Origin: Harmothoe impar
Taxonomy: Eukaryota; Annelida; Polychaeta; Phyllodocida; Polynoidae
DNA length: 64,000 nt
NCBI GenBank assembly: GCA_947462335.1
Contig: OX381704.1
Location: 24,134,442 to 24,198,441 of the forward strand
Direction of reading: 5' to 3'
The notes beneath the pieces were generated by a model. It saw only the letters and a program-made list of their open reading frames with translations, made no database searches and was not told the origin of the DNA. A program made the translations under genes and the position numbers. Position 1 is the stretch's first letter, and each line of letters starts with the position of its first letter. This document shows, one piece after another, positions 5,306-49,654 of this stretch.

Positions 5306-5339
5306 CAGGGGTTGTTATCGATGACAAGATAACAACCCC
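5296..5339 (+). promoter_or_regulatory. Candidate -1 ribosomal frameshift site with hairpin
   Basis: The last two gag codons and the base before them form GGAAAAC (5296-5302), followed at once by the gag stop TAA (5303-5305). Five bases after the heptamer begins a perfect 12-bp stem: GGGGTTGTTATC at 5308-5319 pairs with GATAACAACCCC at 5328-5339 around an 8-base loop. The pol frame is -1 to gag and is open from 5278, so it overlaps the gag end by 28 bases. The heptamer is not a textbook X-XXY-YYZ site because the third base is A. The spacing and stem fit a frameshift stimulator well. In-frame readthrough is excluded because another stop follows in the gag frame inside the hairpin. Confidence 0.65.
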
Positions 5340-9531: not shown

Positions 9532-10478
9532 GAGCGGCGGGGCTGGGTTTGTTTGTTGTGGTTACCCGAAATAGTTCGGGTCTCCAAGGACTTACCCGGT
9601 AAACCCCGGAAAGTTGCGTAACTGGTGCTGATTGTCAAAAACACAACGAGAAATACCGGATTTTATTCTTTAGTCTTTGTGACGGGAATAATGGTGAAAT
9701 TGACCAGTAGATGGCATTGGGGTACCCAACGTTCTGCTTTACTAAAGTTAGTTTTGAATGTTTACATGCTATGGTCTGTGAGTTAGTTTCCCATTTAGTA
9801 CTTGTCGTGATGGTTTCGGATTAGAATCCAATCAAACCTAGTCAGTAATTTTTCTAAGGATAATATGAGGATCCTGATACGAAATATTATGTGGAAAGTA
9901 CGGGTGGAAAACTCGTTACAACAATATGAGAAAAGGTACTCATACGTATTCCGAATTTGTTCGGACAACCAAAGAAATTTACTTTGACACGTATTTTTTT
10001 TATAATGTTTGTTTAAAACAGCGTTCTGAAAGTTCATAAGCTATAAATGAGACAGCGGTGACGAACTGAAGAATTGCTATTACTTGAAATGATGTGCAAA
10101 AATACAATCCGAGAAAACCCGGCGAAGATTGCAACTACTACGCAGTTAACTCCGCCACCCGGTTTTCTTCGGATAATACCGGATAACTTCTTCGGGAAGG
10201 GCTATCCGGTACCCGTGATCCTTTGCGCTTGGGTGCGCACGCATGCTGGTTTGGCGCGGAAAGCGTCAGTCCTGCACATACCGTTGGAGAGGGTGGATGC
10301 GAAGGCACCTCTCTCCGCGTATGTAACACCGGTTAGAACATCTACATGTGAGGGAGAGAGGAGACACTAAAGTGAGGTAGTACAGGAGGACACATTTGTA
10401 ACAATTTTCCTGATTTTACTACTCATTTAAGCTCATTTTTAGAGTGGGCTCCTCTGGGCCGCCCTCTGTGTAGTTATC
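9532..10478 (+). other. Spacer between pol and the third ORF
   Basis: There are 0.95 kb without a convincing gene. A 98-codon frame (10074-10370) has no recognisable features. The 3' end has a pyrimidine-containing stretch ending in TAG at about 10472, seven bases before the ATG of the next ORF, which could serve as a splice acceptor. An internal promoter is the alternative; I see no good TATA box. Confidence 0.5.
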
Positions 10479-33800: not shown

Positions 33801-36800
33801 GGAGGGCATCAGCCGCCATGTTGACAGCCCTGTGCATGGAGGTGACTGCAGTCATAAAGTCATCAGAGCAGTAGAAGCCAATGCGCAGTTTGTTAGTCTG
33901 TTTAAAAACCTACAAAGATATGCCATGAGTTAACCTGACTGTAATTCCAATTCCTAATGTAAGACGTGGCGTTATGTACTTACTTCTTGTCACTACTGCA
34001 GAATCTGAGAGGACCCACCACTGCTGTGGCCAGGCTTAAGTATGATTATGGGGACTGTTTCCCCCCACCATAGGCCCTTCTCACCAAACTCTAATGTATT
34101 AACCCATTACTCTGCTTGGAGAGTGTGGGCATGTCCTGCCCCTCTGTGATTGGCCGCTTTTCTACTGCAGACCAGTACAGAGGTTGTGTAATGGCCTGTG
34201 GACCATTGCACTACCCTTGCACTACCCTAAAAACTGTAATTCCAAACTTATGCTACTCCATACCTGATGCTGCTAGCAAAAATTATATCTGTTTGATAAC
34301 TCAGAATGTGTATTATAACATTACATATTAATTGAATCCCTTGATGATCATTCATGTTACGATACCTATGGGGAGATAAAGGAAGTTAATAAATCTAGAT
34401 TTAAAAACCGCCTGTCCTAAAAAGACACATTTTTTCATGACTAAATACCACTTGTACCACAAAAAGGTGTTTTTTCCCCACAAACTACGGAATATTTTTG
34501 TCGACCGTATTATGTGGAGAAACAGCACCCAGGTGGTTGTGTATACCTCTTCATCAAACGGCATGGGTGCCACTGTGCGGTCCAACTCAAACATGTACTG
34601 ACACTGGACAGCACGTGACATGATAACGAGGCTGTCCACGTCACGGGCCATCGGACCATACACTGAAGGGACTGAAGTAAAGGAAAACCATTATTCAACA
34701 AACAGTATAAGCTTCAGAGACAATATGTAAAATATGTAAATTTGTCCACAAAATAAATCATACTTAGTAATGGAATTGTACCAGCAAAATGTTATTTGTT
34801 TAGGGCAAAAGGTTATAATTTTTGTTTCAGTAGTCTGAGAATCTATATCCTAGTAGTAAGGTATTCATTTTTTTCACTGAGACTTTAGGGATTGATTTTA
34901 TGGACAATTTGAGGATTGGCTTTAAAAATATAGAAGTTACTGGGAAGCTTCTCAGAAATTGATGTCTGGAAACATGCGAATCTTTGAGATGACTCGTTCA
35001 GTTCATTCAGTTGCATTGTAAACGACCCAAAAAAGTAAGGTCCTGCCAAATTTCTTCAAGCAACGGATAAACGTTTCTATAGTTCTGATCGCTGCTGCTT
35101 TACTAAGTAAGTATTAAAAAGCATAATGTGTTATCGGAATATTATATTTTCTTTTTCCTCCAGCCATTCATCTTGTGCAAAATTGTTATGGATTGTCTAG
35201 TTTTAGATTAGCAGTTTTAGTTTTAGCATGAAAGGACATGTAATAGCATGAAATAGATCTAACAATCTGCTGTACTTACTGACGGTTTGTCCCTTGAGTA
35301 ATTTGTTTACATCGCGGTTGCTCCAACGGCCGGCTGTGGGTTTAAAGCCGCAGATGCCACACATGGATGCTGGGATGCGGATACTGCCCCCGATGTCTCC
35401 CCCCAGCCCCAGTGGGCTGCCTCCTCCACCAATAAGCGCCCCCTCACCACCCGAGGAGCCACCCGCACACCGACCCTCACCGTGAGGGTTGTAGGTCTGG
35501 CCGAACATGGGACTCGATGTGTCATAGCTGAAAAATCCATGTTGTTATATCAACTTTATTCCTTTAAGGACTGTATGCTGCTTGGAAGCTGCTGTTCATT
35601 TTTCATCATGTTGCATCAATTTAATTACAAATATTAAGAGCCGAAGTATGTTCAATAAACAGTGTACATTCATTTCAGAGTTCTCTATAAACTAGGATGG
35701 GTTCTTAGAGGTCATAATTTAGCACGATGTATGTGTTTATAAAACAAATAACTAAGATAAGATGTCAACGTTTAAGTAACCCTATTGTTTGCCTTGATAC
35801 AATGTTATTCCCAACTTAACCTCGCCCACTATAATATGATTATCAATTTAATGGGTACTTGAAATGCCAATTGAAAGATAAAATCATGCTTGAATGGCAA
35901 GGTCTATATCTTATCTCTGTTTATCAGTCAATAAACAACATTGGACTGCAATGAGTACAGCGTTCTACTTATCTACCCAAATCATGGCCTAGTCGTGCTG
36001 AATTCAGGAATCTGTAATGTTCTTGATGTGGGGTTATTGCAATAATACTCAATTTAAGACTTTTACATTCCACCTGTCAGATTGTCCATCTGCTGGTGAG
36101 GTGGTACATGTATTTACGATAAGAAAGGACAAAAGATAGTACATGCCTGATACAGGTCTGAGGAACATTGGTCCTCACAAAGGGTATAGCTCCCTGCTTT
36201 TTGAGTACCTGTGAAGAACGCCATTAAGGTCAGTAAGCTTTAACTTAATATACTTCCTTAACAATGACTTATATCAAATCTAATTTCACGTTATTAACAT
36301 TTGATCCATGGCAAATAAATTAGAAACTATGTATTTAAACATATGTCAAAATCAGTGGATTATTCAATTAGTTATGCTGCATGGTAAGATATCTATTATG
36401 TCAATGGCAAAGATGTTACACTGTTTACCTTGACTATAACAGAGTCCTTTGTGCATGGCTTATTGATGTTACGGGTTACTCCGAGAAGACTATCATACCC
36501 CTTGGGATGGATTAGAAGCACAGTAAGCTGTCATATAAATCTCAAGTGTAATACCTCGTGAATCCAAAACATTGATGACGATGGATATATGCTATCTACA
36601 AGTTTATTATAATTTATTATAATGATATTGATACAATGTACATGTATTGAATTGTTACGTAATAAGATTATACAGAGGACTGATACAATGAACCTCATGC
36701 TGGATGGCCCCATGTGTCTATTCTCTCTATATTTGTCCACATATTTAGTATTGATAATCAGAAAATTTGCTTTAAAGTGCAAGGAGCAAATTTGGCTGGT

Positions 36801-38016
36801 ATCAATGCCCTCCTTATAACGAGACTTTTCTGTATATACCATTGCAGTAGTATAGTATGTATCGGAACGGGACTATAGTTAAGTACTGTTTATTACTCAA
36901 TCGACATGCAGCCAATCAGAGGCCTCCATTTGGTCACGTGACCCGTTGCCATGGTAACGTGACCTACTTAGGGCTCTCAGCCAATCAGAAGCCAGCATTC
37001 TGGGTGACCTACTGACCTACTTAGAAGCTCTCAGCCAATCAGAGGCCGGCATTCTGGTAACCATGGTAACGTGACCTGCTTACGTCACGTGACCTACTTA
37101 GGCTCAGCCAATCAGAAGCCGGCATTCTGGTAACTAGGGTAACGTGACCTACTTAGGGTTTGTTTGTAAACAACACCACGTGGCTCTCTTGTTTGTAAAC
37201 AACACCACGTGACACGTGACTGTTTGTAAACAAACAACTTATATATAGAAAATAAACACAACAAGTTCCATGTTATGTTAAAATTATATTTTCAAAAAAA
37301 AAGCACATCTGTTACAGCGTCTATGTGTAACTACGCGCGTTCTCATTCAAACACTATAACACTATCATACCGTAGCAGCAGCAGGTAGGACTGGAAGAAA
37401 AGCAAGCGCACGAGCAGAAGCGACGACACCAGTTGCACCATCCGGCCGTCGCGTTGGTAGCCCTACTACTCGTCGCGCGTTCAACTGGAGGTTTAAGAGT
37501 GACAAATGACGATTCTTTGTCAACGCGACTGCTAACATCAGCATCGGCAGCAGCATTGGCAGCATCGGCAGCAGCATCGGCAGCAGCGGCAGCAGCCTCG
37601 GCAGCAGCGGTAGCAGCAGTAGCAGCAGCTGTAGCAGCAGTAGCGTGAGCATTAGCAACAACAGCAGCAGCGACAGTAGCAAGGGCGGCAGAGCGGGCAC
37701 TAGCAGCGTTATCAGCGGCGTCATCGGCAGCCGCAACAGCATCAGCAGCAGCAGCGTCGGCATCGGTGGCATGAGTAGCTGCATCGGCGGCAGCAACAGC
37801 AGCAGTCACAGCCGCAGCGGCAACAACAACAACGTCATCACAACCAGCGTCACTAACAGCCGCAGTAAATGCAGCAGTAGCACGCTGAGCAGCACTAGCA
37901 GCAGCAGTAGCAGAGGCTACAGCATCAGCTTCACATTCGCGCGCCGCTTCGTCATTCCGCTTCATGTTACGGTAGCAACTTTCCATCATGGGGATCTGCA
38001 AATTGAGGCGCGGTGC

Positions 38017-38088
<72 letters not shown>

Positions 38089-41000
38089 CGTGAACGATGA
38101 TGACGATGCCGAATACGGTTTCACTCCCCCTTATATACCCTTACTCCCCCCTTTTTTTTCAAGCCACCGGCCAGCTGCCCCCTCACGGCAGGTCTTTAGA
38201 TCAGCCTTAAGTCGCTTACTACGCGGCTCATCATCCCTCTAATCGCATTTTCCAGCCGCCGGCCGGCTGACTGCTGACGACAGGAGAGGGTGATTTGTTT
38301 TTCTTTAGATTTAAGCCGCTTACCACACGCACACCCTCTAGTCACAGACAGAGTGACAGAAAGGGAGGGGGTCCAGCTGAAAAGCGTGATTAGGGCTTTT
38401 GTTTCTCTTATGATAGCAGCAGGTCAGCATGCGACAGCTGAAAATGTCAGACTCGCCGCTCCTATAAAAGACTGAGATGCGTCTCTCTTTCCACACACCC
38501 TTCTACCATCGCCGCCGACACCGCCACCACCGGCCAGCCGACCGCCGCCACCGCCTGCAGTCACCGCCATCACGCCAGCAGGGAATTTCGAGCTGAGTCT
38601 GCTTATTGCTTATTTTTTTTGTTTGAGCTTTTTGTTTTTTTAAAAATTTTTATTTTCACTCAGTCTTTTTTGTTTCGGAGGAAAGAAATATGGCGCTGCA
38701 GAGGGCGCGAGTTTCTAAAAGACGGTCGCGCGAACAAAGTGCTCTCCTCAACTGCCCGGCTATTTTTTTATCTCAAAGGAGAGAGCGTCACGTAGTTGAG
38801 GTTCACGCTTCTCTTGAAGCGTACCGAATTCTCGAGAAATGCAAAGCTGAGCGCCATCGTCGTTATACAAGAGCGGAAAAGGAAAACGTAGCGACATGGC
38901 CGAGAGCCGTCTTCTCAGAACAGCATTTACTCTACTATTGCATAACAGCCGCTCTCAGCGCCCCCACTCGTTGGGCGTTTCATGAAAAGAAAGAGCGCCG
39001 CTACTCTCCTCACCCTGCCTCCTCTTATAAAGTGAGAATAAGTGCTATGAAACGATTCGACAAGCCGATCGGTTTCTTGGGAGCGACTGCAGCTCCCACT
39101 CGGTGGGCGGGCGTTGTGGCCGACGTGAACACGGTCTCTAAACGTTTCGACGTCGTCACTTGTTATCCCGCATATTGCAACGCAGCCGAATTGAAGAAGA
39201 TAGGGACGCACTATTTTAAACCATACGCTCCAATATGTATTTGTCACCGCCGCGCTCACAGGCCTTATTGCTTTTTCGAGACGATCGTGTCACAACACAG
39301 AAATAGAAAAAAAAGCGGCAAAGCGACCAGCTTTGCCTAAATGATCAAAAAAAAAATAAAATAAAATAAAAAAAAAAGAAATTAATCTCCTCCTCCTCCT
39401 CCTCCTCCTCCTCCTCTTCCTCCTCCTCCTCCTCTTCTTTTTTAAAAAAAAAAAAAATATTTGTATCAGACTCCTCTGGAGTCTGATACAAACATTTATG
39501 ACTATTGAGTGAAAATAGAATTTTATCGCAAAAAAAAAAAAGAAAAAAAAGGCACTTCTGCCGCCGCTACTGTGACACCGGCCGGTATCAATAAAAAGGT
39601 CGGCTGACTTTTCTCCACAACCATTTCGACGCTCGACTACAAGGACCCTTTAGTTGTATCATTAGCGGTCCGTCGGGTTGTGGAAAATCGCGCTTGGTGG
39701 ATCAATTTCTGAGCGACGTGAACAATTTGGTCACGCCGCCGGTGGAAAAGACTTTTTACCATTACGGCGAGTGGCAACCTCTGTTTGAAAAAATGCAAAA
39801 TCAGTACGGTGTGGAATTCAGAGAAGGTCTTCCTAGCAAAGAGTCTATAGCGGGAGACGTGGAAGTAGCAGAAGACGCTTTACGACCCCACACTCTACTG
39901 ATATTGGACGATCTGATGAGCAGTTCCAATCAGCAAGTGGTAGCCGACATCTTTACTAAATACTCGCATCACTGGAACGTGAGCGTCATATACATCACTC
40001 AGAACCTATTCCAGAAATCACCCGACTTTCGAACTATGAGTCTGAACGCTCACTACATGATCGTTTTCAAGAACCCGCGCGACATGGGGCAAATAGCTAG
40101 TCTGTCTCGCCAGGTGTTTCCGTCCAACGCGGCGGCCCTCTCTAGTATATTTACCCATGAACTCAAGCGACCTCACTCATACCTCCTTCTGGACTTCAAG
40201 CAGTCAACACCTGACGATCTGAGAATACGCTCCTCTTTGACGTCCATACACTCTCAGCTAGTGTTCGTACCGCTAGACAAAAAAAAGAACAAGAGAAAGC
40301 AGTAGCAAAAAAATGTCTTCTCATCTACTCGAAAGACACTTTGGTACTCTCAAGCACTTAGCTAAGTGCTCGCCAAAGGACTGCTCGCATCTAATAGACT
40401 CTGGAAGCGACGATCTGATCGCAGCGTTAAGTGAGATCTGTCACAATTTACTGGTAGGGAACATCCCGCTCAGCGACAAACAACTGGACAAGCTTTGAGA
40501 ATCGGCTGACGTGTTGAGGGAGGTCGGCAAAAAATCTACGCCCATCAAAAAAAAGAGACGCGTCTTGGTACAAGAGGGAGGTTTCCTCATTCCGGCTCTC
40601 ATAGGGATGGCCTTACCGCTTATAAAGAGCATTCTCCGTATATGAGACACCTCATTCGACACCTACTCGCCGACAGCACCACCACCACCACCACCACTAC
40701 CGCCACCACCAGCGTCATTGCCACCGTCGTCCCCATGACGGACTCAGAGCAGCAACAACACTACAAACGTTTAGCGCTCGTGGATCCTGAGACGCTCTAC
40801 AAATCATCACGAGCAGGTCTACTTCATCATGTGCCCGCTGCTGCTGCTACTACTAGCGCTGCTACTACTGCAGTCGCTGCTGCTAGTACTTCTACTGCTC
40901 CAAACCTTCCTCCTCTTCCTGATGAGCGCACTGAAAAGAACGAGAGTTCCGCTCCTGCCACCGCCGCCCGCCTACCTGCCGACATGGCCTATTACCACAA

Positions 41001-44000
41001 GCAGGCAGAACAGTCCCTTCATCCCGACGCGGCCTTGCACCAGGTGCTACAGTTTATCTACAGGGACTTGGATTTAGTGTTGAACGACCCCACTTTGGAA
41101 TCGCGCGAGAAAATGTTGAAATACCGAAGGTTGTTGAATAGATTGCAATTTTTTCTCGCGAATCCCCACAACAGCAACATCTCTTCGTCCTACTCTTCTT
41201 CGCCCCCGGCTCACCTCCGTCAGTCTGCTGAAGAGGCCAGCGCGTCCCTACTCGAGCGGTTGGTGAACCAAGTTCCCAAGAGGAATCGCACTCGGACCGT
41301 GGCGCTGTACAAACAATTGGAGAAATCCGGTGTGATCAAGTGGAACGAGGACGGTGCGGTGCGCGAGATGTCGGGTCGGAGAATACCACCTGAGCATCGC
41401 ATCAACATAGTGGACTTACTGAACGACGCTGCCAGGTTCAGGAAGACGGCGCCCAGACCGGCGGGCTACTCGCCGTTCACGAAAGCGCTGCGCGAAGCAG
41501 TTCCCACAGACTCCTTGATCGGAAACCATCTGTATAAAGCGAGCGGACCTGGCCGAAGTTTGGACACACGGCTTGCTGACAGAGGTCGGAAACGACCGAG
41601 CTTCGACTCGGAAGAAGGAGAAGCAGCAGCAGCAGCAGCAGCAGTAGCAGCAGCAGACTCTTCTCTCCAGGTGGACGATCAATCCTCTGACGACGAGGAG
41701 GACGACAGTGAACTTTTCCAAACTCCGACTTCCTATAGGAGCGTGGCGAGTAAGAAAAGGAGAGGGCGCAACCGCCTAGCGGCGAGCTCGTCGTTCACGC
41801 CCTCAACAGGCCCACCATGGGCAAACCAGTGAAGAGACTGACCAAGAAGGAAAAAGAAAAGAAGCGCGTAGTAGCTAGATATACCGACGTCAAAGCGCCC
41901 TCCAGTTTCACTAGCGTGACTAAACATCATTTTCGCCACCTGAACCCGGCCGTCATCCGAGATGCTTTAGTGTCGCTGGACGCCTACACTAAACATAAAC
42001 CCATTCGGAGAAAATTCGCAAGGAACAAGACTATAACCGGCGCAATCGATCAGCAGTGGCAGATAGATCTGATGGACATGCAAGCTTTGGCGTCTCACAA
42101 CGACCGCTTCCGGTACGTGGTGACGGCGATCGACGTTTTCTCTAGGTACGCGTGGGCCGTTCCCATTAAATCCAAGAGCGGCGCTGATGTCACCGAGGCC
42201 TTCCGAGAGATGACAGGCACTGGCGAGAGACGACCGCGCACTGTTCAGACAGACAAGGGGAAAGAGTTTTTGAACAAGATCTTTCAAGATCACTTGAAGA
42301 GCGAGGGCATAGAGTTCTTCACTGGCGAGAACGACGACATCAAAGCTAGTCTAGTGGAGCGCTTGAACCGCAGTCTGAAGGAGAAGCTGTGGCGTTATTT
42401 CACACACAAGCGCACGTATCGCTACGTAGACGTACTGCACCATGTAGTGTCTTCTTACAATCGCACTCACCACAAGACGTTGAAAATGGCGCCGGCTCAA
42501 GTCAGCTCGGAAAACAGCGAAACAGTTTTCTACCGACAAGATCTCCCAACTAACAAACAAATCGACGAAATATGGAAAAAGAAGAAAAAAACAAAGACGT
42601 CCGCCGTCGACGTCATCGCTCCGGGTGACAGAGTGAGGATGTTGAGAACTAAAGGCGCCTTCGACAAAGGGTACGAGGGAAACAGAGGGTTCGAGCTGAA
42701 AGACGACAAGGGCGAGGAGATAAAAGGCGTCTTCTACCCGGAAGAGGTTCAGAAGGTGTACAAGAGTCGTTACGACAACAACTACCTGATAGACGAGGTG
42801 TTGCGCCGCAAGACCGTCGACGGTAAAGAGTTAGCTTTCGTACGTTGGTTAGGTTACGACGACAAGTTCAACGAGTGGATCCCCGTCAAAAAAATAAAGT
42901 AGAAAAAAAAAAAAAAAAAAAAAAAATGAACATCACTCTACCTAGCAACAGCTCTATGGAGTATTATCCTGACAACAGCTTGACGTCTTTCCGAACTCAC
43001 TTCGACTCGCCGCTCCTTCTGCCCGAAGCGTACGAAGCGGCTCTGACTGAGATCATCCTCCCTACAGAATGGACTAACGTGCACGACGACGACTTGATCA
43101 TCGTTGTTCCTCTGCGCACCAAAGGTTCGCTAGAGGAGGCGATCCAGGTTTTAAAAGAAACTAAATTCTCCGAAGGAAAAAAACCACAGGTAGACTGGAG
43201 GGGAATGAAAAACGCGAACGGTCTGAGCAAGCTAACGTTCAGCTCAAAATTCCCGCTGAGCTGGAAGGAAGCGAGCTATGTAACGGTGGAAGAGATATCA
43301 GACACGTCGGAAGAGCAGCAATTGAAACCGGAAACAAAAAGGTTCAAGAGAGAGGTCGACTTGAGACAGACAAATGCCGTATACAAGCAGTTCTTGTCCC
43401 CGGCGGTGAAGAAGAAGGCGATCAGCGATCAAGCAAGACAGATGATCGAAAAGATGGAGAAGGACATGGGAGTGCGCAGTTTCATGCCAAACATATTCGA
43501 GATACCTCCTATTTTCACCGGAAGCAACCACACCCTAATCGAGCGCTTGAGTGAGACGTTGCGAGATGACAGACTAGAGGGCGACAGCTTCTTGCTCAAA
43601 CCGATGCGGATCTTATCGTACGACGCCAAGACGAAACGCGTCACCATCAAACCGCCGAGACACTGTGCTGTCCTGCTGAGTCAGCATCTCGCATGCGTTC
43701 TAGGCTTCGGAGAGAAGACGTGTTTCGCGTCGCCGACTACCGGCGCCTACTCGATGGATGTTTACGGGGACGTGCACTCTGTGTACATATACACCGACAT
43801 GATCCAGGAGAGACGTGTGGGCGACATGCAAGTGCCGCTGTTGCGCTGCGTGGCGGTGGACAGAGGCGGAAAGCGTCGAGGTGGCGTGCAAGCTATCAGT
43901 TTTCCCCATTTGGATTATTTCCCCTTGAAATCCAAGAGGTTTACCGAGGTCGGCATCTATTTAAGAGACCGATCCGGTCATTCCATCCCATTCGGTAGAG

Positions 44001-47000
44001 GCGAGGTGACCGTGACACTTCATCTGAGACCTATTGAGCGCTGAAAGAGAGAAAAATGATGCGTCAACGCGTTCCGTACTTTCCACCCAGGCGCACCGTC
44101 GGCAGAGGGTACAGCGATTACTACAACGCGCAGCTGGGCAACGGCATCAACATGTACAGCGGGCGCTCTTTCCAGAGCGGGCACGGTTTGGGCGGCGCTC
44201 TGTTAGGTCTGATGCGCTCGGCTACCCCGCTATTGAAGTCGGTGGGAAAAACGCTGCTCCGCGCCGGTGTGGGCGTAGCTAAAGATGTGCTGGCGGGTCG
44301 GACTTTAAAGAGCAGCGTGAAAGACCGAGGCGCAGGCGCTCTGAAGAGACTGGCGAGTACGGCGTTCTCGGGAGGAAAGACGCCTGTCGCGTCTAAGAAA
44401 GGGTCGAAACGTCGCCGGCATTCTCCTCAGACGGGCGGTGGCTCTTGCAAGAGACGTAGAGGGGATGTATTCGACCGGTAAGCGCCTAGGCGTTCAGGTA
44501 TAAATAAAAAGACTGGAGGCGGCCGGCGTCAGTCTGTCGGCCGCGTGAAGAGAGAACACAATGGCTTACGTACACGAGAGCAGTAACGAGTGCGCGCTCT
44601 CTGAGCTCGACCTGCACACCGTAGCGCCGACTCAGACTACTATCTTAAAGTCGTCTTTCCTGGGGATAGAAACAAAAAACTCTTTAGAGGATGGAGGTAA
44701 CATAAATTTCACCATCAACAAGTCGCAAGAGTACACAGACCTGAACGAGAATTACCTTCATCTGGAATGTCAAGTGCTGAAAGCGAACGGAGCGGCGATC
44801 GAGGACACCGACGCGGTAGCTCCGGTGAACAACTTGGCTCACTCGCTCTTCAAAGACGTCCAAGTCTCCATCGGCGGTTTCAAAGTGTCTGGCAACACCG
44901 AGACCTACCCTTACCGAGCTTACTTGGAAGGGTTACTCAACTACAACAAAGACGTGAAGGACGGCGTCATGAGCGCCCAGGGGTGGCATGAAGATACGCC
45001 CAGTCAGTTTGACACGTTGACTGACGCGAATGCGGGGTACAAAGCGCGCAAGAAGCTAATCTCCAACAAGCGCTTTTCGCTGATGGCGCGACTGCACTTT
45101 GACCTGGCTCATCAACCGAAGCTCATCGTTGGAGAGACAGAAATCAATCTCACTCTGAAACAAGCGGCGCCCTCTTTCTATCTGATGTGCGCCGCTGACG
45201 GAGGCTACAGCTTGAAGATCTACAAAGCAAAGCTCTACGTGCGACGCGTGCTGGTGGCGGACGCTGTAGCGGAAACGCACGAGAGAGCGGTGATAGAACA
45301 CGGGCCCTTCGACTACCCGGTGAACAGAGTGGAGGTGACGACGTACGCCATCCCTCAAGGTAACAGAGATCACAGCTACACGCACTCCAACACAGGCCAG
45401 CTTCCCAAGTCGATGATGATTTGCTTCCTTGACCACGACGCCTTCAACGGTAGCTACACCAAGAACCCGTTCGAGATGAAGCATTACGACATCAGCTCGC
45501 TTCAAGTGATAGTGAACGATCAGAAAGTGCCGAACGACGCCTACGTGCCCGACTTTAAGACCAAAGCGGCCGTGAGAGAGTACTTGGCGCTTCACACGGA
45601 AACGGGGATGTACGAGGGCGCGCGCTCCTGCGGTATTTCATACGATCAATTCCTGAACGGTTACACGGTGTTCCCCCTCGACTTAACCCCAGACAGATCG
45701 CACGACGGGTGTCGCGTGAACCTTATAAGAGCGGGTCAGCTGAGGGTGGAAGTCAGTTTCCGCTCGGCGCTACAAGCGACAACAACGGTGCTACTCTACT
45801 TGGTGTACGACAACGTCGTCGAGCTGACCCGAGATCGACACCCCGTCACCGACTACCACATGAACTGAAGACAAGACGGCGGTACTTGGCGTATCGTATG
45901 AACACGCTTGAAATAAGCAGAGTGTTGAAGGAAAACGTTCACACAAAACATCGTTTCCTGGGCGTTTTCTCTTGTGACACTATTCCGAAGCACCCTATCA
46001 AAGACACTTGTTTCGTGAGCAACACAGATCCGCAACATTTACCAGGTCAGCATTGGGTGGCGTTTTACGTGTCGAGCACGGGTGAAGTGTACTACTTTGA
46101 TTCCTTCGGCTTACCGCCGCTGAGTGCGGAGTTCTTGTCTTTCGTGGAACGCTCTGCTCCGTTCAAGTGGCAAAGAAACCGCATTCAACTACAAGACACT
46201 TCTGCTGACACCTGTGGACCTCATTGCGTTCATTTCCTAATTGAAGCATGTCGAACAAGAAACCCCAAGAAGTGCGTCATGCGCATGAGCAAAATCCCAA
46301 AGCTGAGCGACCGGGCCGTGAGTCAGAAGCTATCGATGATGCTGTTGTGACGGGTTGTTGCGATGGCGGCCGTTTCATGGAGGCAAAGATTCTCTGCCTT
46401 GCCGAAATGGTGTTGGATTTATCCAAAGTCGTGCAATGTCTATTGGAGAGAAGTCGTCCGGGGTGTGGTGGTGCGAGTGACGGCGGTGTGAGACTTTGCG
46501 GCCTGTTGAGTTGCTGCAAATCGAAGAAGCAAGCTAAAAAAGCATAAACTTGTGTGTTTTTTCTGATTGAAATGAAAATAAAGAATAAAATGAAAAGAAA
46601 AGAAATTATCTTGTTGTGTTTTTATTTCTATATATAAGTTACATAACTTTTTTTTGTTTGTTTGTTTACAAACAGTCACGTGTCACGTGGTGTTGTTTAC
46701 AAACAAGAGAGCCACGTGGTGTTGTTTACAAACAAACCCTAAGTAGGTCACGTTACCCTAGTTACCAGAATGCCGGCTTCTGATTGGCTGAGCCTAAGTA
46801 GGTCACGTGACGTAAGTAGGTCACGTTACCATGGTTACCAGAATGCCGGCCTCTGATTGGCTGAGAGCTTCTAAGTAGGTCAGTAGGTCACCCAGAATGC
46901 TGGCTTCTGATTGGCTGAGAGCCCTAAGTAGGTCACGTTACCATGGCAACGGGTCACGTGACCAAATGGAGGCCTCTGATTGGCTGCATGTCGATTGAGT

Positions 47001-49654
47001 AATAAACAGTACTTAACTATAGTCCCGTTCCGATACATACTATACTACTCATTGCCATGAGAGAAAGCTGCCTACATAACCTGTTTGTCTATAAGTAAGT
47101 CTGAAAAATACATCCTGGTAATAAAAGTTAAATATACATCCTGGTTAATAAAATCTAACGGCTGTATGACTCACATACATATATTTGTTAGAGATAAGGT
47201 TTACTCACCACCATAGTGAAGTTATCCTTTATACTAATAGGAACACCGTGAAGTGGTCGGTTACTTCTGTCCTCCATCTGATCACACTCCAAGGCCGTTG
47301 CCTAGTTCATATAGATTCCAGGGGAAACGTATAATATTACTGCATATTTCACCTACATAACGCCATTTGGTAATTATAACACCACATTACTAACGTGATT
47401 TCGTTCCCCTGACTACTGTATTTGACCAATTAAGTATAATCCGTGAGCCTTTAGAAGTCCAGCGAGTTTACCATCATTTTTTCCATTAAACCTTAGGGAT
47501 ACGAGACATAAGATTTGAGATATATGATAGTGACTCAGTGGAGAAAGGTCATAACTGCTTTGTCTTGATCATGTAACCATGGATACCATTTATCATGATT
47601 ATTGTGACATGACATCTGGCTAGATATGATCTAGGGGTATAAAACCACATTGTACATAAAGTCGAAATTCCACCCCGTTGATGTTTCATGTATTTACTGC
47701 ATTATAAACATAACTATTTTTCTTAAAATGGAAATATCTCAAAAAAAGAGATTTCCAGTTACGACCTTTCTCCATTGAGGTGATTACTAAAGTTTTGGAG
47801 ATTAGAGATTTAAATTGTTGTGTCATACCTCTGCCTCGTGTACTACTTCAAGGATTGCATTGGTTTTCTTATTGACGATCAGTGCCTATTGGTAATAAGT
47901 GTGGGAACATAGTTACAGCGCTATGGTTTACAGATTAAGAGCAACATAGTGTTTTGATATGCTGTGGTACTTGTCATTATGATGCATGAATAAAACCATG
48001 GTGATTAGCTATAGCTATAGTGCTGCATTAATGCCACGGAGTTATGCATCATGCCGACCCTCTGGGGCTGCACGCCTAGGCTATGGGGTTCATAGATACT
48101 CTCGAGGTGTCAGCACCACCTTCCAAAGAAGATGTGATAGAAAAGTTTACAATAAAGTCTCTTGGCAGAATACCGTCCTTTTTAAAGGGCTAATAGACTA
48201 CTCTATATAGTTTCCAGAATAAATAAATAAATAAATAAATAAATAAATACCCTGGTACGTATATATATGTAAGACTGGGTAGTGTGACTTAGATAAACAT
48301 CAGGCTGCGGAGAATAGCTATATGTCTATACCCAGATAGGAAAACTTTTTCCAAACGTTTGCAAACGTTTTGCAGGAAAGCCTTTTTCATACAAGCTTAC
48401 CTATAGATAATGTTTGCATCCAAACATTGGAAAAACGTTTGCAAACGTTCGGAAAACGTTTGCAAACTGTTTTTCTTTTGGTAGCTGAGAAATGCAAATA
48501 GGTCAGTATTAGAACCGGGATTAGAACACTGGATAGGCTCACCTTCTTCTGGTAAGCACGGAGAACGTCAATTGCTTTCAGCTCTCCTTTCTGAAGTTTG
48601 TCAGTAAGTTGTTCCAGACTAAGTTGGCATATTTCACTCATTTGCTCATCGGTAATCTGTTATTTACAATATTAGTTTATCAATTATTTTAAAATTAACA
48701 ATCATGTAAGTGTATGCTGCACCACTATACATTAGAGCTATAGATTGCGCTGATAAAATGGGATGTCCCAGTAAACAAATAACATTATACACCATTTTAT
48801 ATTAAAAAAACGTTATATAACGTTATATGTCAACGTTTTTCTAAGGCTCTTTAGTATGACATAACGTTATGTAAAATTTAAAACGTTATTTTGACGTAAA
48901 ATAACGTTTTTTTGTTAGCTGGGGTTAGCCTTGCCAAAAAAGTTATTTTCAGAGGCAGACACTTTCAGAAAGGGAATCATCTGTGGGGTATCTCTACCTC
49001 GTATAGTAAACCTATGATATGTTATTGAAGGTCATAAGCGGTGTTCTGTGATAGATATAGTAATAGTACTGCCACATCTCTGTATGCATTGTATTTTGTA
49101 TTGGCCACAGTCAAGACTAATCACGAGTCGAAGACGAATGTACGCAGACTTGGCTGAGGTCAATATAATCCTACAGTGAATATGGCTGTACTACGTGGTA
49201 GATATGGTACACATGAGTAGCTGTAAAGATGTTATAAGCCAAGGACAACTTGATTTCCGAGGCATCAGCCGAGTTAATTACCATTTTCTAAGGATTAAAT
49301 ATTTATACGGTTACTCACATGTATCCATATACTTGACTATTTCTATGCAATATACACAGGGTGTTTCTGTTTTCCCCTAACCAACTCTGGTATAAACTTA
49401 CGCTATAACAGACATTATGATCTACTTACACCACTTTGTTGAATACGCTCGGAGAGTAAGGCTATGGCCTTTTGACATGCTTTCCGCTTCTCTTCGCGCT
49501 TGTGGCACAGCACAGCCCTTCTCCGCCAGGTCATAAGTTTGTTAATGAAGAGTCCTGCTAACACTGCTGACACCAGGGGTTTTCTGTGTTCCCAAAGCCA
49601 GAAATACACAGATGTCTGGGACAGAAACCATTCTCGGAGTTGGTCCATCATCAC
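27826..49654 (-). CDS. FAAH: Fatty-acid amide hydrolase, 16 exons, 589 aa
   Basis: An amidase-signature serine hydrolase that breaks fatty-acid amides such as anandamide into fatty acid plus amine at internal membranes. Exons in coding order (all minus): 49430-49654, 48543-48656, 47829-47885, 47209-47301, 36429-36500, 36147-36208, 35280-35527, 34547-34671, 33784-33909, 33196-33293, 32875-32974, 30316-30359, 29230-29269, 28694-28805, 28339-28478, 27826-27939 (stop TAA). Phases join without conflict into 590 codons including stop, close to the roughly 580 aa of vertebrate FAAH1. The N-terminus has a membrane helix (about residues 26-42) followed by a basic stretch. The catalytic Lys 157, Ser 232 and Ser 256 lie in SIKDN, GGSSGGEG and DIGGSIR. 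Their spacings (75 and 24) equal those of human K142/S217/S241. All introns are GT-AG except the one after exon 6, which has a GC donor. The fourth intron (between exons 4 and 5) is swollen to 10.7 kb by a Polinton. Confidence 0.95.
29832..30059. mobile_element. 228-bp MITE with ~70-bp inverted repeats in a FAAH intron
   Basis: The left arm has AAGTAAAGGTGTCAACTGTG and the right arm its inverse, continuing through CCACGTGGCTCTGG / CCAGAGCCACGCGGG. The centre holds two copies of TTTGAGTTGACTCTCTACTAT-type sequence. A broken relative is at about 51100-51400. It has no coding capacity. Confidence 0.7.
30384..30484. repeat. Palindromic hairpin element
   Basis: Perfect 20-bp arms at 30407-30426 and 30442-30461 surround a 15-base loop made of AAGGCCGAAGGCCGA. 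The outer 20 bases (ATACTCCTGG on the left, CCAGGAGTGTAT on the right) pair imperfectly, giving a ~100-bp fold-back. Confidence 0.8.
30731..31155 (+). repeat. tRNA-derived SINE followed by a tandem-duplicated tail
   Basis: A tRNA-like head carries a perfect B box GGTTCGAATCC at 30787-30797 and a weak A box upstream. It is followed by two direct copies (about 30852-31002 and 31003-31155) of a ~150-bp unit. Each copy has an AAAGAAA run, a GGGGGCGGAGCCCCC hairpin and an ATTTATACAA-like end. The same G-rich hairpin tail occurs near 52290 and 54700 and inverted near 32290. Confidence 0.6.
31155..31400 (+). repeat. Two further tRNA-like SINE heads
   Basis: GGTTCAAACCCC near 31235 and a tRNA-like stretch at about 31325-31395 (GTGGAGCAGTCAGTTAGC... 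GGATCCTGC) resemble Pol III internal promoters with degraded boxes. They do not fold into convincing full tRNAs in my reading, so I call them SINE remnants rather than tRNA genes. Confidence 0.4.
32049..32735. mobile_element. ~0.69-kb MITE with long inverted repeats
   Basis: The left end CTGTAACAGGC... continues into TCAACAAAATAATCTGTCCA, and the inverse of both blocks closes the right end. The internal TCTTAAA-rich parts are also inverted. The centre has a CTACACCCAGATGAGACAAC block (minus orientation) plus a C-rich run, shared with the element at 52157-52593. It has no coding capacity. Confidence 0.65.
33336..33420. repeat. Three tandem copies of a palindrome-containing ~34-bp unit
   Basis: Each unit has GCCGAGCATCGACTATAGT, and the middle copy completes the palindrome CATCGACTATAGTCGATG. 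It lies about 50-130 bases upstream (in gene sense) of FAAH exon 10. Confidence 0.75.
35280..35527 (-). CDS. FAAH: FAAH exon 7 (amidase signature)
   Basis: This exon carries the Gly/Ser-rich amidase signature with both catalytic serines (232 and 256) and the conserved CGICGFKPT. Its acceptor is TTTTTCAG. Its first base completes a Ser codon begun in exon 6. It ends one base into a codon, completed by exon 8. Confidence 0.95.
36840..36845. other. Left target-site duplication of the Polinton
   Basis: CATTGC is repeated exactly at 47050-47055. A 6-bp duplication is the rule for Polinton/Maverick insertions. Confidence 0.95.
36846..37265 (+). repeat. Left terminal inverted repeat with promoter-like motif array
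   Basis: It contains four CCAATCAGA boxes (CCAAT at 36912, 36981, 37034, 37108), five CACGTG boxes (36935, 37086, 37177, 37206, 37213), three TGTTTGTAAACA-like forkhead palindromes from 37161 to 37232, and TTATATATAG at 37239-37248. The CCAAT units are embedded in a ~55-70-bp subrepeat ending in GTGACCTACTTAGG. The layout resembles a strong inward-reading promoter. Confidence 0.9.
37354..37989 (-). CDS. Alanine-rich low-complexity ORF, uncertain
   Basis: A frame of about 211 aa from the ATG pair at 37989, with a non-repetitive start (MMESCYRNMKRNDEAAREC) and a Cys-rich end, separated by a long Ala/Asp run encoded by GCT/GCC-type triplets. A minus-strand TATATAAGG lies at about 38131-38139, at a suitable distance for a promoter. 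The frame extends upstream to a GTG at 38124. The opposite strand also reads as Ser- or Ala-rich frames, as any GCA repeat does, so this could be chance. I know of no function. If real, it is the only Polinton gene on this strand. Confidence 0.3.
   Translation of the reverse strand: MMESCYRNMKRNDEAARECEADAVASATAAASAAQRATAAFTAAVSDAGCDDVVVVAAAAVTAAVAAADAATHATDADAAAADAVAAADDAADNAASARSAALATVAAAVVANAHATAATAAATAATAAAEAAAAAADAAADAANAAADADVSSRVDKESSFVTLKPPVERATSSRATNATAGWCNWCRRFCSCACFSSSPTCCCYGMIVL
38463..38470 (+). promoter_or_regulatory. TATA-like box before the 216-aa ORF
   Basis: TATAAAAG followed by GACTGAG. It would place a transcript start near 38495 and a leader of about 195 bases before the ATG at 38690. 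Confidence 0.4.
38690..39340 (+). CDS. Unrecognised 216-aa basic protein of the Polinton
   Basis: A complete ATG-started frame (context AATATGG) in the GC-rich body of the element. The N-terminus is strongly basic (ARVSKRRSREQ) and could bind nucleic acid or act as a nuclear signal. Internal repetition is visible: APTRWA at 91-96 and 135-140, and KRFD at 121-124 and 151-154, suggesting a duplicated module. The second module is followed by Cys/His residues (C158, C163, C183, C185, H186, H190, C194) that could bind zinc. It ends in a basic tail. I do not recognise a family. It occupies the position upstream of the virion genes where this element lacks a polymerase, so a replication or regulatory role is conceivable, but that is inference. 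Confidence 0.55.
   Translation: MALQRARVSKRRSREQSALLNCPAIFLSQRRERHVVEVHASLEAYRILEKCKAERHRRYTRAEKENVATWPRAVFSEQHLLYYCITAALSAPTRWAFHEKKERRYSPHPASSYKVRISAMKRFDKPIGFLGATAAPTRWAGVVADVNTVSKRFDVVTCYPAYCNAAELKKIGTHYFKPYAPICICHRRAHRPYCFFETIVSQHRNRKKSGKATSFA
39341..39594. other. Non-coding gap with CTC repeats and a 15-bp hairpin
   Basis: It holds poly-A runs, a (TCC)n run at about 39386-39440, and a perfect hairpin. The arm TTTGTATCAGACTCC (39460-39474) pairs with 39478-39492 across the loop TCT. AATAAA near 39590 may end the upstream transcript. Confidence 0.7.
39595..40305 (+). CDS. A32/FtsK-HerA-type packaging ATPase of the Polinton
   Basis: This ATPase pumps the genome into the capsid, as in adenovirus-like and NCLDV-like virions. 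The frame is open from 39595 to the stop (236 codons). Walker A is GPSGCGKS at residues 25-32, Walker B is LLILDDLM at about residues 102-109, and the downstream YITQNLFQ fits the family's sensor region. Length fits the family. Oddly, there is no ATG in frame before Walker A: the first in-frame Met comes inside the domain, and only near-cognate codons (CTG 39604, TTG 39694) lie upstream. Either the start was lost, a non-AUG start is used, or a short upstream exon exists. It ends 7 bases before the next ORF. Confidence 0.8.
   Translation, partial: KGRLTFLHNHFDARLQGPFSCIISGPSGCGKSRLVDQFLSDVNNLVTPPVEKTFYHYGEWQPLFEKMQNQYGVEFREGLPSKESIAGDVEVAEDALRPHTLLILDDLMSSSNQQVVADIFTKYSHHWNVSVIYITQNLFQKSPDFRTMSLNAHYMIVFKNPRDMGQIASLSRQVFPSNAAALSSIFTHELKRPHSYLLLDFKQSTPDDLRIRSSLTSIHSQLVFVPLDKKKNKRKQ
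40313..40645 (+). pseudogene. Small Polinton protein gene split by an in-frame TGA
   Basis: The frame starts at ATG 40313 after seven A's and runs 61 codons to TGA at 40496-40498. The same frame then stays open to a second TGA at 40643-40645. The second part holds a basic cluster followed by a Gly-rich hydrophobic segment (GGFLIPALIGMALPLIK), which resembles small membrane-active proteins found in many Polintons. The simplest reading is one ~110-codon gene interrupted by a point mutation; readthrough is the alternative, though the base after the stop is not a strong readthrough context. The terminal TGA overlaps the ATG of the next frame (ATGA at 40642-40645). Confidence 0.55.
40642..41832 (+). 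CDS. Conserved Polinton protein of unknown role (396 aa)
   Basis: Two starts are possible: ATG 40642, overlapping the previous stop, which adds a Thr run from ACC repeats, or ATG 40735 (MTDSEQQQHYKRLALVDPE), which looks more natural. The middle (about residues 115-170) is helical around a conserved-looking tyrosine/arginine-rich segment. It is followed by LVNQVPKRNRTRTVALYKQLEKSG..IKWN and a G-x-x-I motif that matches a protein family I recall from many animal Polintons. That family has no known function. Alanine runs from GCA repeats and an acidic C-terminal region follow. It overlaps the integrase start by 16 bases. A virion or DNA-binding role is plausible but not shown. Confidence 0.7.
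   Translation: MRHLIRHLLADSTTTTTTTTATTSVIATVVPMTDSEQQQHYKRLALVDPETLYKSSRAGLLHHVPAAAATTSAATTAVAAASTSTAPNLPPLPDERTEKNESSAPATAARLPADMAYYHKQAEQSLHPDAALHQVLQFIYRDLDLVLNDPTLESREKMLKYRRLLNRLQFFLANPHNSNISSSYSSSPPAHLRQSAEEASASLLERLVNQVPKRNRTRTVALYKQLEKSGVIKWNEDGAVREMSGRRIPPEHRINIVDLLNDAARFRKTAPRPAGYSPFTKALREAVPTDSLIGNHLYKASGPGRSLDTRLADRGRKRPSFDSEEGEAAAAAAAVAAADSSLQVDDQSSDDEEDDSELFQTPTSYRSVASKKRRGRNRLAASSSFTPSTGPPWANQ
41817..42902 (+). CDS. Retroviral-type integrase with C-terminal chromodomain
   Basis: This enzyme inserts the element and makes the 6-bp duplication. It is 361 aa. Catalytic residues are Asp 84 (QWQIDLMDM), Asp 146 (VQTDKGKEF) and Glu 181 (ASLVERLNRS), a DD35E triad. The C-terminal part (about 318-361) is a chromodomain: YLIDEVLRRK...LAFVRWLGYDDKFNEWIPVKKI. 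It could direct insertion to modified chromatin. The ATG at 41817 has an excellent context (CCACCATGG). The protein resembles C. elegans F54H12.3. The stop at 42902 is followed immediately by the poly-A leader of the next gene. It appears intact. Confidence 0.95.
   Translation: MGKPVKRLTKKEKEKKRVVARYTDVKAPSSFTSVTKHHFRHLNPAVIRDALVSLDAYTKHKPIRRKFARNKTITGAIDQQWQIDLMDMQALASHNDRFRYVVTAIDVFSRYAWAVPIKSKSGADVTEAFREMTGTGERRPRTVQTDKGKEFLNKIFQDHLKSEGIEFFTGENDDIKASLVERLNRSLKEKLWRYFTHKRTYRYVDVLHHVVSSYNRTHHKTLKMAPAQVSSENSETVFYRQDLPTNKQIDEIWKKKKKTKTSAVDVIAPGDRVRMLRTKGAFDKGYEGNRGFELKDDKGEEIKGVFYPEEVQKVYKSRYDNNYLIDEVLRRKTVDGKELAFVRWLGYDDKFNEWIPVKKIK
42926..44044 (+). CDS. Candidate minor capsid (penton) protein of the Polinton
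   Basis: 372 aa, starting MNITLPSNSSMEYYPDNS. This opening (LPSNSSM-x-Y-x-P-x-N) is shared by a widespread Polinton structural protein family. I take it as the minor capsid or penton protein because it is encoded beside the major capsid gene; the fold itself cannot be seen from sequence. The start is the ATG at 42926, directly after a run of 24 A's. An upstream in-frame GTG extension through the integrase end is not credible. It is followed after 11 bases by the next ORF. Confidence 0.7.
   Translation: MNITLPSNSSMEYYPDNSLTSFRTHFDSPLLLPEAYEAALTEIILPTEWTNVHDDDLIIVVPLRTKGSLEEAIQVLKETKFSEGKKPQVDWRGMKNANGLSKLTFSSKFPLSWKEASYVTVEEISDTSEEQQLKPETKRFKREVDLRQTNAVYKQFLSPAVKKKAISDQARQMIEKMEKDMGVRSFMPNIFEIPPIFTGSNHTLIERLSETLRDDRLEGDSFLLKPMRILSYDAKTKRVTIKPPRHCAVLLSQHLACVLGFGEKTCFASPTTGAYSMDVYGDVHSVYIYTDMIQERRVGDMQVPLLRCVAVDRGGKRRGGVQAISFPHLDYFPLKSKRFTEVGIYLRDRSGHSIPFGRGEVTVTLHLRPIER
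44056..44481 (+). CDS. Small basic Polinton protein with glycine-rich amphipathic segment
   Basis: 141 aa. The start MMRQRVPYFPPRR is followed by YYNAQLGNGINMYSGRSFQSGHGLGG, then a Gly/Ala/Leu amphipathic stretch (about 50-90) and a Lys/Arg-rich tail with KKGSKRRR and KRRR. The pattern recurs in Polintons next to the capsid genes and is reminiscent of small adenovirus core or cement proteins; equivalence is inference. ATG is preceded by AAAAA. It is probably virion-associated and DNA- or membrane-binding. Confidence 0.65.
   Translation: MMRQRVPYFPPRRTVGRGYSDYYNAQLGNGINMYSGRSFQSGHGLGGALLGLMRSATPLLKSVGKTLLRAGVGVAKDVLAGRTLKSSVKDRGAGALKRLASTAFSGGKTPVASKKGSKRRRHSPQTGGGSCKRRRGDVFDR
44499..44510 (+). 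promoter_or_regulatory. TATA box before the major capsid gene
   Basis: TATAAATAAAAA lies 62 bases upstream of the capsid ATG and 18 bases after the previous stop. It also contains AATAAA, so it could serve as the polyadenylation signal of the upstream transcript. Confidence 0.5.
44561..45868 (+). CDS. Major capsid protein of the Polinton
   Basis: 435 aa, starting MAYVHESSNECALSELDLH. It belongs with the invertebrate proteins annotated F54H12.2-like, and its length fits a double jelly-roll capsid protein. Recognisable features are the N-terminal SSNE-x2-x2-LD-L motif, FTINKSQEYTDLNENYL near residues 51-67, and SLFKDVQVSIGG near 95-105. It would form the trimeric capsomers of an icosahedral shell. 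It is intact, with its own TATA box. The gene ends 29 bases before the protease ATG. Confidence 0.85.
   Translation: MAYVHESSNECALSELDLHTVAPTQTTILKSSFLGIETKNSLEDGGNINFTINKSQEYTDLNENYLHLECQVLKANGAAIEDTDAVAPVNNLAHSLFKDVQVSIGGFKVSGNTETYPYRAYLEGLLNYNKDVKDGVMSAQGWHEDTPSQFDTLTDANAGYKARKKLISNKRFSLMARLHFDLAHQPKLIVGETEINLTLKQAAPSFYLMCAADGGYSLKIYKAKLYVRRVLVADAVAETHERAVIEHGPFDYPVNRVEVTTYAIPQGNRDHSYTHSNTGQLPKSMMICFLDHDAFNGSYTKNPFEMKHYDISSLQVIVNDQKVPNDAYVPDFKTKAAVREYLALHTETGMYEGARSCGISYDQFLNGYTVFPLDLTPDRSHDGCRVNLIRAGQLRVEVSFRSALQATTTVLLYLVYDNVVELTRDRHPVTDYHMN
45898..46350 (+). CDS. Adenain-like cysteine protease of the Polinton
   Basis: 150 aa from ATG 45898. A maturation protease of the adenovirus/Ulp1 clan, expected to cleave virion proteins. 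The catalytic residues stand in the expected order: His 52 in GQHWVAFY, Asp 68 in YYFDSFG, Gln 99, and Cys 106 in DTCGPHC. Gln to Cys spacing is 7, as in adenain. The length is shorter than adenovirus protease (about 200 aa) but normal for Polintons. A longer frame reaches back into the capsid gene without an ATG of merit. It overlaps the next ORF by 103 bases. Confidence 0.9.
   Translation: MNTLEISRVLKENVHTKHRFLGVFSCDTIPKHPIKDTCFVSNTDPQHLPGQHWVAFYVSSTGEVYYFDSFGLPPLSAEFLSFVERSAPFKWQRNRIQLQDTSADTCGPHCVHFLIEACRTRNPKKCVMRMSKIPKLSDRAVSQKLSMMLL
46248..46547 (+). CDS. Small Cys-rich ORF overlapping the protease end
   Basis: 99 aa in the +2 frame relative to the protease, sharing 103 bases with it. 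It has a hydrophobic/Cys-rich centre (MEAKILCLAEMVLDLSKVVQCLLE) and a tail CGLLSCCKSKKQAKKA, a Cys-then-Lys pattern like acylated membrane tails. It is not recognised. It is followed within 35 bases by AATAAA. It may be real because it fills the last gap before the inverted repeat. Confidence 0.45.
   Translation: MSNKKPQEVRHAHEQNPKAERPGRESEAIDDAVVTGCCDGGRFMEAKILCLAEMVLDLSKVVQCLLERSRPGCGGASDGGVRLCGLLSCCKSKKQAKKA
46577..46590 (+). terminator. Polyadenylation signal at the right end of the Polinton
   Basis: Two AATAAA copies (46577 and 46584) lie downstream of the last rightward genes and just before the inverted repeat. Confidence 0.55.
46610..47049 (-). repeat. Right terminal inverted repeat of the Polinton
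   Basis: Inverse of 36846-37265 with a small insertion (extra CAAA/AAAAGTTATG near its inner end) and one clear substitution near 46812. It carries the same CCAAT, CACGTG and forkhead-like motifs and the TATATATA box, now reading leftward into the element. Confidence 0.93.
47050..47055. other. Right target-site duplication of the Polinton
   Basis: CATTGC, identical to 36840-36845. Confidence 0.95.
48221..48250. repeat. (AAAT)n microsatellite
   Basis: About seven AAAT units in the FAAH intron between exons 2 and 3. Nearby (48340-48480) are repeated AAACGTTTGCAAACGTTT words. At 48800-48920 in the next intron there are AACGTTATATAACGTTAT words. Confidence 0.8.
49430..49654 (-). CDS. FAAH: FAAH exon 1 (start and membrane anchor)
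   Basis: It encodes 75 aa, starting MMMDQLREWF, with a hydrophobic helix PLVSAVLAGLFINKL and then basic residues. It ends at a GTAAGT donor. There are three consecutive ATGs; the first is taken. A possible 5'UTR splice acceptor (TTTTCATCTACAG) lies about 50 bases upstream, so an untranslated leader exon may exist further right. Confidence 0.85.

What the first reader, a model, noticed from the sequence alone, without database searches (positions are those of the whole stretch)
36846..47049. A complete-looking Polinton with capsid, packaging and integrase genes but no DNA polymerase
Ends, target duplication and inverted repeats are intact and nearly identical, so this is a whole unit and not a deletion product joined at random. 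At 10.2 kb it is far shorter than the usual 15-20 kb. All genes are accounted for, and none resembles a protein-primed family B polymerase. It could be a satellite that borrows a polymerase from a full Polinton or virus, or use a host enzyme. That would make it a virion-forming transposon with a different replication route.
Basis: partly seen in the sequence, partly recalled or inferred. Interest (0 to 1): 0.9.

Follow-up and report, generated by a model that had tools for sequence, protein, structure and literature searches.

The report
Polymerase-less Polinton family in animal genome
A virus-like jumping element that carries capsid, packaging and integration genes but no recognisable DNA polymerase has recently multiplied many times in what appears to be an animal genome, so it probably borrows a polymerase from related elements there.

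Summary
The window carries a 10,204-bp Polinton/Maverick with perfectly matching 392-bp inverted repeats and a 6-bp target duplication. No polymerase is recognisable. It is not a one-off deletion: of 38 further sites with the same repeat, 31 span 9.4-10.65 kb, mostly about 10.5 kb. Of 20 read at length, 19 have both ends with matching duplications, and none has a polymerase-sized extra frame. At least three keep ten open frames: a 216-aa unknown, packaging ATPase, integrase, double-jelly-roll capsid (by predicted fold), protease and five smaller or unassigned ones. This is the published Maverick gene order, with the unknown gene where the polymerase should be. The window copy itself is damaged. 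Genes of the copies are 99.5-99.8% alike and differ mostly by private changes, as after one recent burst. The ends keep the (AGT)2//(ACT)2 motif common in vertebrate Mavericks, and the same genome holds many open protein-primed polymerase genes, none near a listed repeat. Best reading: a satellite-like Polinton family replicated in trans. A helper with matching ends was neither found nor excluded; that search did not complete. New variant of a known kind.

The parts
36840..36845 (.). left target-site duplication CATTGC
   Evidence: read; identical to 47050-47055
36846..37237 (+). left terminal inverted repeat, 392 bp, tip AGTAGTATAG, four CCAAT and five CACGTG motifs
37433..38100 (.). low-complexity GCA/AGT-rich stretch without a recognisable gene
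38690..39340 (+). 216-aa ORF of unknown function, in the place of the polymerase gene of published Mavericks
   Evidence: (three homologues, 80-95%); no Pfam match, no PDB match beyond chance
39595..40305 (+). packaging ATPase frame (GPSGCGKS Walker A motif); in this copy no ATG before that motif
   Evidence: Adeno_IVa2 match of a sibling protein
40313..40498 (+). small ORF, 110 aa in siblings (position of published PM); stops early in this copy
40642..41832 (+). 396-aa ORF (position of published PZ)
41817..42902 (+). integrase with rve core and chromodomain (the latter below its cut-off); two in-frame deletions relative to relatives
42926..44044 (+). 372-aa ORF, probably minor capsid (penton) by position and recalled N-terminal pattern; fold not tested
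44056..44481 (+). 141-aa ORF (position of published PW)
44561..45868 (+). major capsid protein, double jelly-roll
45898..46350 (+). adenain-type cysteine protease
   Evidence: Peptidase_C5
46248..46547 (+). 99-aa ORF, unknown
46658..47049 (-). right terminal inverted repeat, 392 bp, tip ACTACT
47050..47055 (.). right target-site duplication CATTGC

Best explanation
It is one copy of a recently amplified Polinton family that encodes its own integrase and virion genes but has no protein-primed polymerase gene. Shown: the short form is the usual form of the copies examined, it inserts as a unit with 6-bp duplications, it has capsid, ATPase, protease and integrase genes, and protein-primed polymerase genes are abundant elsewhere in the genome. 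Inferred: a polymerase from another Polinton, or from a co-infecting virus, recognises the (AGT)2 ends and copies the element in trans. The element's own integrase inserts the copies, and its capsid genes may package them, so that it behaves like a satellite of polymerase-bearing Polintons.
For: Of 38 sibling sites, 31 have spans of 9.4-10.65 kb: 15 of 20 and 16 of 18. In 19 of the 20 read at length both ends have identical target duplications, and one of these holds a further complete copy nested with its own duplication. The 20 are colinear with the window copy as far as the stretches compared go. The three longest simple spans hold 3.3-3.7 kb insertions whose longest open frame is 146 codons. 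Of 184 variants in coding frames, 168 are private to one copy. All 41 ends found begin AGTAGTATAGTATG (they were found by this tip with up to 3 mismatches in 30). PMC8097293 section 7 gives (AGT)2//(ACT)2 as the commonest end of vertebrate Mavericks. One search lists 129 PF03175 matches; 28 rows cover positions 12-462 of the 468-position profile, 26 of these without a stop. Of 40 TIR hits, 0 lie within 147 kb of the 27 listed polymerase places on C1-C5.
Against: No polymerase-bearing element with matching ends was found. The 2.1 kb read beside one polymerase has no significant DNA similarity to this element and is much more AT-rich. The searches scored only part of their candidates: 83 of 695 for the polymerase and 40 of 521 for the TIR. 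So a long form with the same ends may have been missed. Virions, extrachromosomal DNA and terminal protein were not tested.
Confidence: 0.6

Rival explanations
1. Ordinary non-autonomous derivative: an autonomous parent with the same TIRs and a polymerase exists in this genome, lost the polymerase once by deletion, and the short form was amplified by the parent's whole machinery. Capsid and integrase genes would then be mere passengers.
For: Gene order matches published Mavericks with only the polymerase missing. Only 83 of 695 polymerase candidates and 40 of 521 TIR candidates were scored. Coding variants are only mildly biased to synonymous (pN/pS about 0.49 for shared and private variants alike), which does not prove selection on the genes. 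Numerous Maverick copies with broken polymerase genes are known in some vertebrates (PMC8097293, passage).
Against: None of the 20 copies read at length and none of the 16 further sized sites is a long polymerase-bearing form (2 of the 18 were not sized). A gene of unknown function with relatives at 80-95% sits where the polymerase should be. At least three of 20 copies keep all ten frames open.
Confidence: 0.2
2. The 216-aa protein, or another unknown frame, is a new replication initiator or terminal protein that recruits a host polymerase, so the element is autonomous by a new route.
For: It is the only gene in the polymerase position, has three relatives at 80-95%, and has no Pfam match and no PDB match beyond chance.
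Against: I noticed no known catalytic motif. The structure model is useless (mean pLDDT 32). Variants within the family are not clearly constrained (11 nonsynonymous and 1 stop to 4 synonymous).
Confidence: 0.12
3. The copies are made by host repair or replication after cut-and-paste by the integrase, with no dedicated DNA polymerase at all.
For: The integrase has an rve core and a weak chromodomain match, and all 19 two-ended copies read at length have 6-bp duplications.
Against: Excision by Polinton-type integrases is not known to me (recalled). The conserved (AGT)2 tips are unexplained by this model.
Confidence: 0.08

Closest known systems
Vertebrate Mavericks/Polintons (PMC8097293)
   Same: 6-bp target duplications, TIRs of similar length (mean 402 bp there), (AGT)2//(ACT)2 ends, gene order atp-pm-pz and int-mcp-pw-MCP-pro
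   Different: no ppolb; about 10.5 kb against 12.7-24.6 kb for intact vertebrate elements; all genes on one strand (reported there for Xenopus tropicalis)
Integrated protist elements without a detectable polymerase, and Polinton-like viruses (PMC10120064, PMC4642659)
   Same: capsid-encoding integrated elements in which no DNA polymerase gene is detected (PMC10120064, which adds that replication genes may have gone undetected)
   Different: those are protist elements; PMC4642659 says that PLVs, with one exception, lack the retrovirus-type integrase. Here the host appears to be an animal, and integrase and protease are kept
Adintovirus-type virion genes with other or no known replication genes (PMC11071296)
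   Same: related virion genes without a Polinton polymerase
   Different: the examples in the passages that I saw carry another replicase or lack a recognisable integrase; here the integrase is kept and no other replicase is recognisable
Virophages and satellite viruses (concept, recalled)
   Same: dependence on another element for replication, if the trans model is right
   Different: virophages encode replication proteins of their own; the proposed helper here is a related Polinton in the same genome

Membership tests
Polinton/Maverick | long TIRs and 6-bp target-site duplication | tested here: met
   19 of 20 siblings have matching duplications
Polinton/Maverick | rve integrase with chromodomain | tested here: met
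   PF00665 E 3.2e-13; PF00385 E 7.5e-4 but below its curated cut-off; most of the 120 relatives listed carry both domains
Polinton/Maverick | double jelly-roll major capsid protein | tested here: met
   model pLDDT 86.6; best PDB matches are PBCV-1, iridovirus, mavirus and Sputnik capsid proteins
Polinton/Maverick | packaging ATPase and adenain protease | tested here: met
   Adeno_IVa2 and Peptidase_C5 above cut-off in a sibling
Polinton/Maverick | minor capsid (penton) protein | tested here: inconclusive
   372-aa ORF in the right place; no Pfam match; fold not predicted
[quoted passage not shown]
   no match in the frames scanned; no polymerase-sized extra frame in the 20 copies read at length. 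So it is not filed as a standard autonomous Polinton
Polinton/Maverick | size of intact elements, 12.7-24.6 kb in vertebrates | tested here: not met
   10.2 kb here; siblings mostly about 10.5 kb
Satellite virus or satellite transposon | replication depends on a helper | not testable with these tools
   potential helpers exist in the genome; dependence not shown

The most novel reading that the evidence does not exclude
A virus-like lineage of animals has become a stable satellite: it dropped its polymerase, has an unknown 216-aa gene in its place, kept a full virion and integration set, and both transposes and packages itself with polymerase borrowed from other Polintons in the same cell. Relatives whose 216-aa gene is about 80% identical would mean that this state has lasted beyond the present burst.
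Probability: 0.35. Interest if true: 0.82.

Novelty: new variant of a known kind. Interest (0 to 1): 0.63.

Why it matters
Polintons are treated as self-synthesising because they bring their own polymerase. A family that multiplies without one while keeping the virion and integrase genes separates these functions. It makes the question of whether Polintons can be satellites of each other directly testable in one genome. It also offers a natural experiment on what the protein-primed polymerase needs at the DNA ends.

Tried and rejected
Single random deletion: rejected, since the short form is the usual form. Hidden polymerase in low-complexity or antisense frames: nothing in Pfam. Long siblings as polymerase carriers: the 11.95, 13.77 and 14.25 kb spans hold insertions with no frame above 146 codons (not profile-scanned), and one site (C4:72046044) is truncated, with no frame above 126 codons in the flank read. 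Free viral forms in IMG/VR: three scans found no relatives. Fold of the 216-aa protein: useless model. DNA similarity between the element and 2.1 kb beside one polymerase: none significant. A frame there looked to me like a Polinton minor capsid N-terminus, but BLASTP did not support it (E 0.51) and Pfam gave nothing.

Full report
What is there. The element spans 36846-47049 (10,204 bp). Its 392-bp inverted repeats are 100% complementary and it is flanked by CATTGC on both sides. Pfam finds an rve integrase core (E 3.2e-13), a chromodomain (below its curated cut-off) and an adenovirus-type protease in the window copy. The ATPase frame has its Walker A motif in the window, and the sibling protein reaches the Adeno_IVa2 cut-off. 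The 435-aa protein has no Pfam match, but its model (37 sequences, mean pLDDT 86.6) matches the double-jelly-roll capsid proteins of PBCV-1, an iridovirus, mavirus and Sputnik. One of its sequence relatives, in the limpet Patella caerulea, is called 'Major capsid protein' by one source and 'hypothetical protein' by another.

No polymerase. Scans of 9 window ORFs (Pfam, PHROGs), 10 sibling ORFs and 10 further small or antisense frames gave no DNA polymerase. Of the 28 rows in this genome that cover most of the polymerase profile, 27 lie in frames of 1,133-1,189 codons. The longest stretch of the element without an assigned frame is about 1.4 kb, partly of low complexity, between the left repeat and the 216-aa ORF.

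A family, not an accident. A search with the repeat gave 521 first candidates, of which 40 were scored, and all 40 were 100% identical over 392 bases. The list is cut: all 40 lie on contigs C1-C5, and the window's own right repeat, equally identical, is not in it. The 40 include the window's left repeat and both ends of one other copy, so they mark 38 sibling sites. I read 20 of the 38 at length and only a 320-base stretch at the expected far end of the other 18. The 20 are colinear with the window element as far as the stretches compared go. In 19 of 20 both ends were found with identical 6-bp duplications; one site (C4:72046044) is truncated. Fifteen of the 20 span 9,397-10,634 bases, three carry 3.3-3.7 kb insertions, one carries a nested second copy and one is truncated. 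Of the other 18, 16 have the far end at 10,468-10,564 bases and 2 were not found in the stretch. For those 18 I checked neither duplications nor gene content. The sample is biased: all were chosen for a perfect copy of the repeat.

State of the copies. At least three of the 20 keep ten frames open. The window copy does not: its ATPase frame has no ATG before the Walker A motif, one small frame stops early, and the integrase has two in-frame deletions, of 3 residues present in 20 of 21 aligned relatives and of 14 present in whole or nearly so in all 21. Mean pairwise identity is 99.46-99.83% gene by gene (14-19 full-length copies per gene); the non-coding left part varies more, down to about 95%. 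Of 184 coding variants 168 occur in one copy only (sites where two frames overlap count twice), as expected after a recent burst from one source. The ratio of nonsynonymous to synonymous changes is about 0.49 for both shared and private variants. Since private changes after insertion should be neutral, mutation bias may explain this, and I do not use it as proof of selection.

Comparison with published Mavericks. In vertebrate Mavericks the first module holds ppolb, atp, pm and pz and the second int, mcp, pw, MCP and pro. Intact elements have 12,723-24,620 bp, and the commonest end motif is (AGT)2//(ACT)2 (PMC8097293, section 7 read, passages). Here the order is 216 aa - ATPase - 110 - 396 - integrase - 372 - 141 - capsid - protease - 99 aa, all on one strand. 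The 110-, 396-, 372- and 141-aa frames are matched to pm, pz, mcp and pw by position only. The unknown 216-aa gene stands where ppolb should be. All 41 ends found begin AGTAGTATAGTATG (found by this tip with up to 3 mismatches, and about half chosen for a perfect repeat). Repeated terminal triplets are also used for jumping back by adenovirus protein-primed replication (recalled). So the ends look like those of an element copied by a protein-primed polymerase.

Source of a polymerase. The same genome has 129 matches to DNA_pol_B_2 (83 of 695 candidates scored). Of these, 28 rows cover positions 12-462 of the 468-position profile and 26 of the 28 have no stop. I compared the 40 TIR hits with the 27 listed polymerase places on contigs C1-C5; the nearest pair is 147,654 bases apart, and the window copy is 169,737 bases from one. 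So potential helpers exist, but none of the scored ones lies at a listed copy. A 2.1-kb stretch beside one polymerase has no significant DNA similarity to this element (best E 0.063) and is far more AT-rich, so that stretch gives no sign of a recent parent. Whether any polymerase-bearing element shares the TIRs could not be tested: the pattern search did not complete.

The unknown gene. The 216-aa protein has only three relatives among 477 candidates (95, 81 and 80%). It has no Pfam match, no PDB match beyond chance and no usable model (mean pLDDT 32). The relatives suggest that the gene is older than this burst; whether they lie in elements without a polymerase I could not check.

Literature. 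What I saw: PMC8097293 section 7 and passages; PMC4028283 section 4 and passages; passages of PMC11071308, PMC11071296, PMC10120064, PMC4642659, PMC3671162 and PMC6431247. PMC10120064 states that many integrated elements in protists lack a detectable DNA polymerase and may use another mode of replication, but also that replication genes may have escaped detection. PMC4642659 suggests that integrated PLVs may use the integrases of resident Polintons in trans. PMC11071296 describes adenovirus-class virion genes in genomes without recognisable polymerase and integrase. PMC8097293 reports many Maverick copies with broken polymerase genes in some vertebrates, so numerous polymerase-defective copies are not new in themselves. 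In the searches (listings and starts of abstracts; one search failed) I saw no description of an animal Polinton family that keeps open integrase and virion genes, lacks the polymerase gene and has amplified. The library lacks most subscription papers.

Verdict. The satellite interpretation is plausible but unproven, and replication most likely uses the usual protein-primed route in trans, not a new one. Because a defining feature (the polymerase) was tested and not met, I call it a polymerase-less variant of the Polintons and not a standard member.

Noticed in passing
window 2438-14315: Three long + strand ORFs (955, 1395 and 1278 codons) that look like a Gypsy-type LTR element with a large third ORF (read by eye, not scanned).
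   Followed up: no
window 35203-35508 and 48387-48641, both - strand: Fragments that look to me like exons of an amidase-type gene on either side of the element, as if it sits in or between such genes (by eye).
   Followed up: no
G000 C1:5583582-5604218: One copy holds a second complete copy nested inside it, each with its own 6-bp duplication.
   Followed up: yes
G000: Two size classes of protein-primed polymerase frames: near-uniform ones of about 1,133-1,189 codons (27 of the 28 rows that cover the profile) and diverse ones of about 1,400-1,567 codons, many without stops. The genome seems rich in recently active Polintons.
   Followed up: partly
P0001: The closest integrase relative (95%) lies on public contigs of up to 10,510 bases, the usual length of this element. 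This could be a collapsed repeat or a free linear form.
   Followed up: no
L067: Two neighbouring frames of 271 and 297 codons with cysteine-rich ends beside a polymerase gene, AT-rich, with no convincing Pfam match.
   Followed up: partly
P0121 and P0122: Two relatives of the 216-aa protein differ in their first part but are identical over roughly their last 75 residues, which suggests recombination between subfamilies.
   Followed up: no
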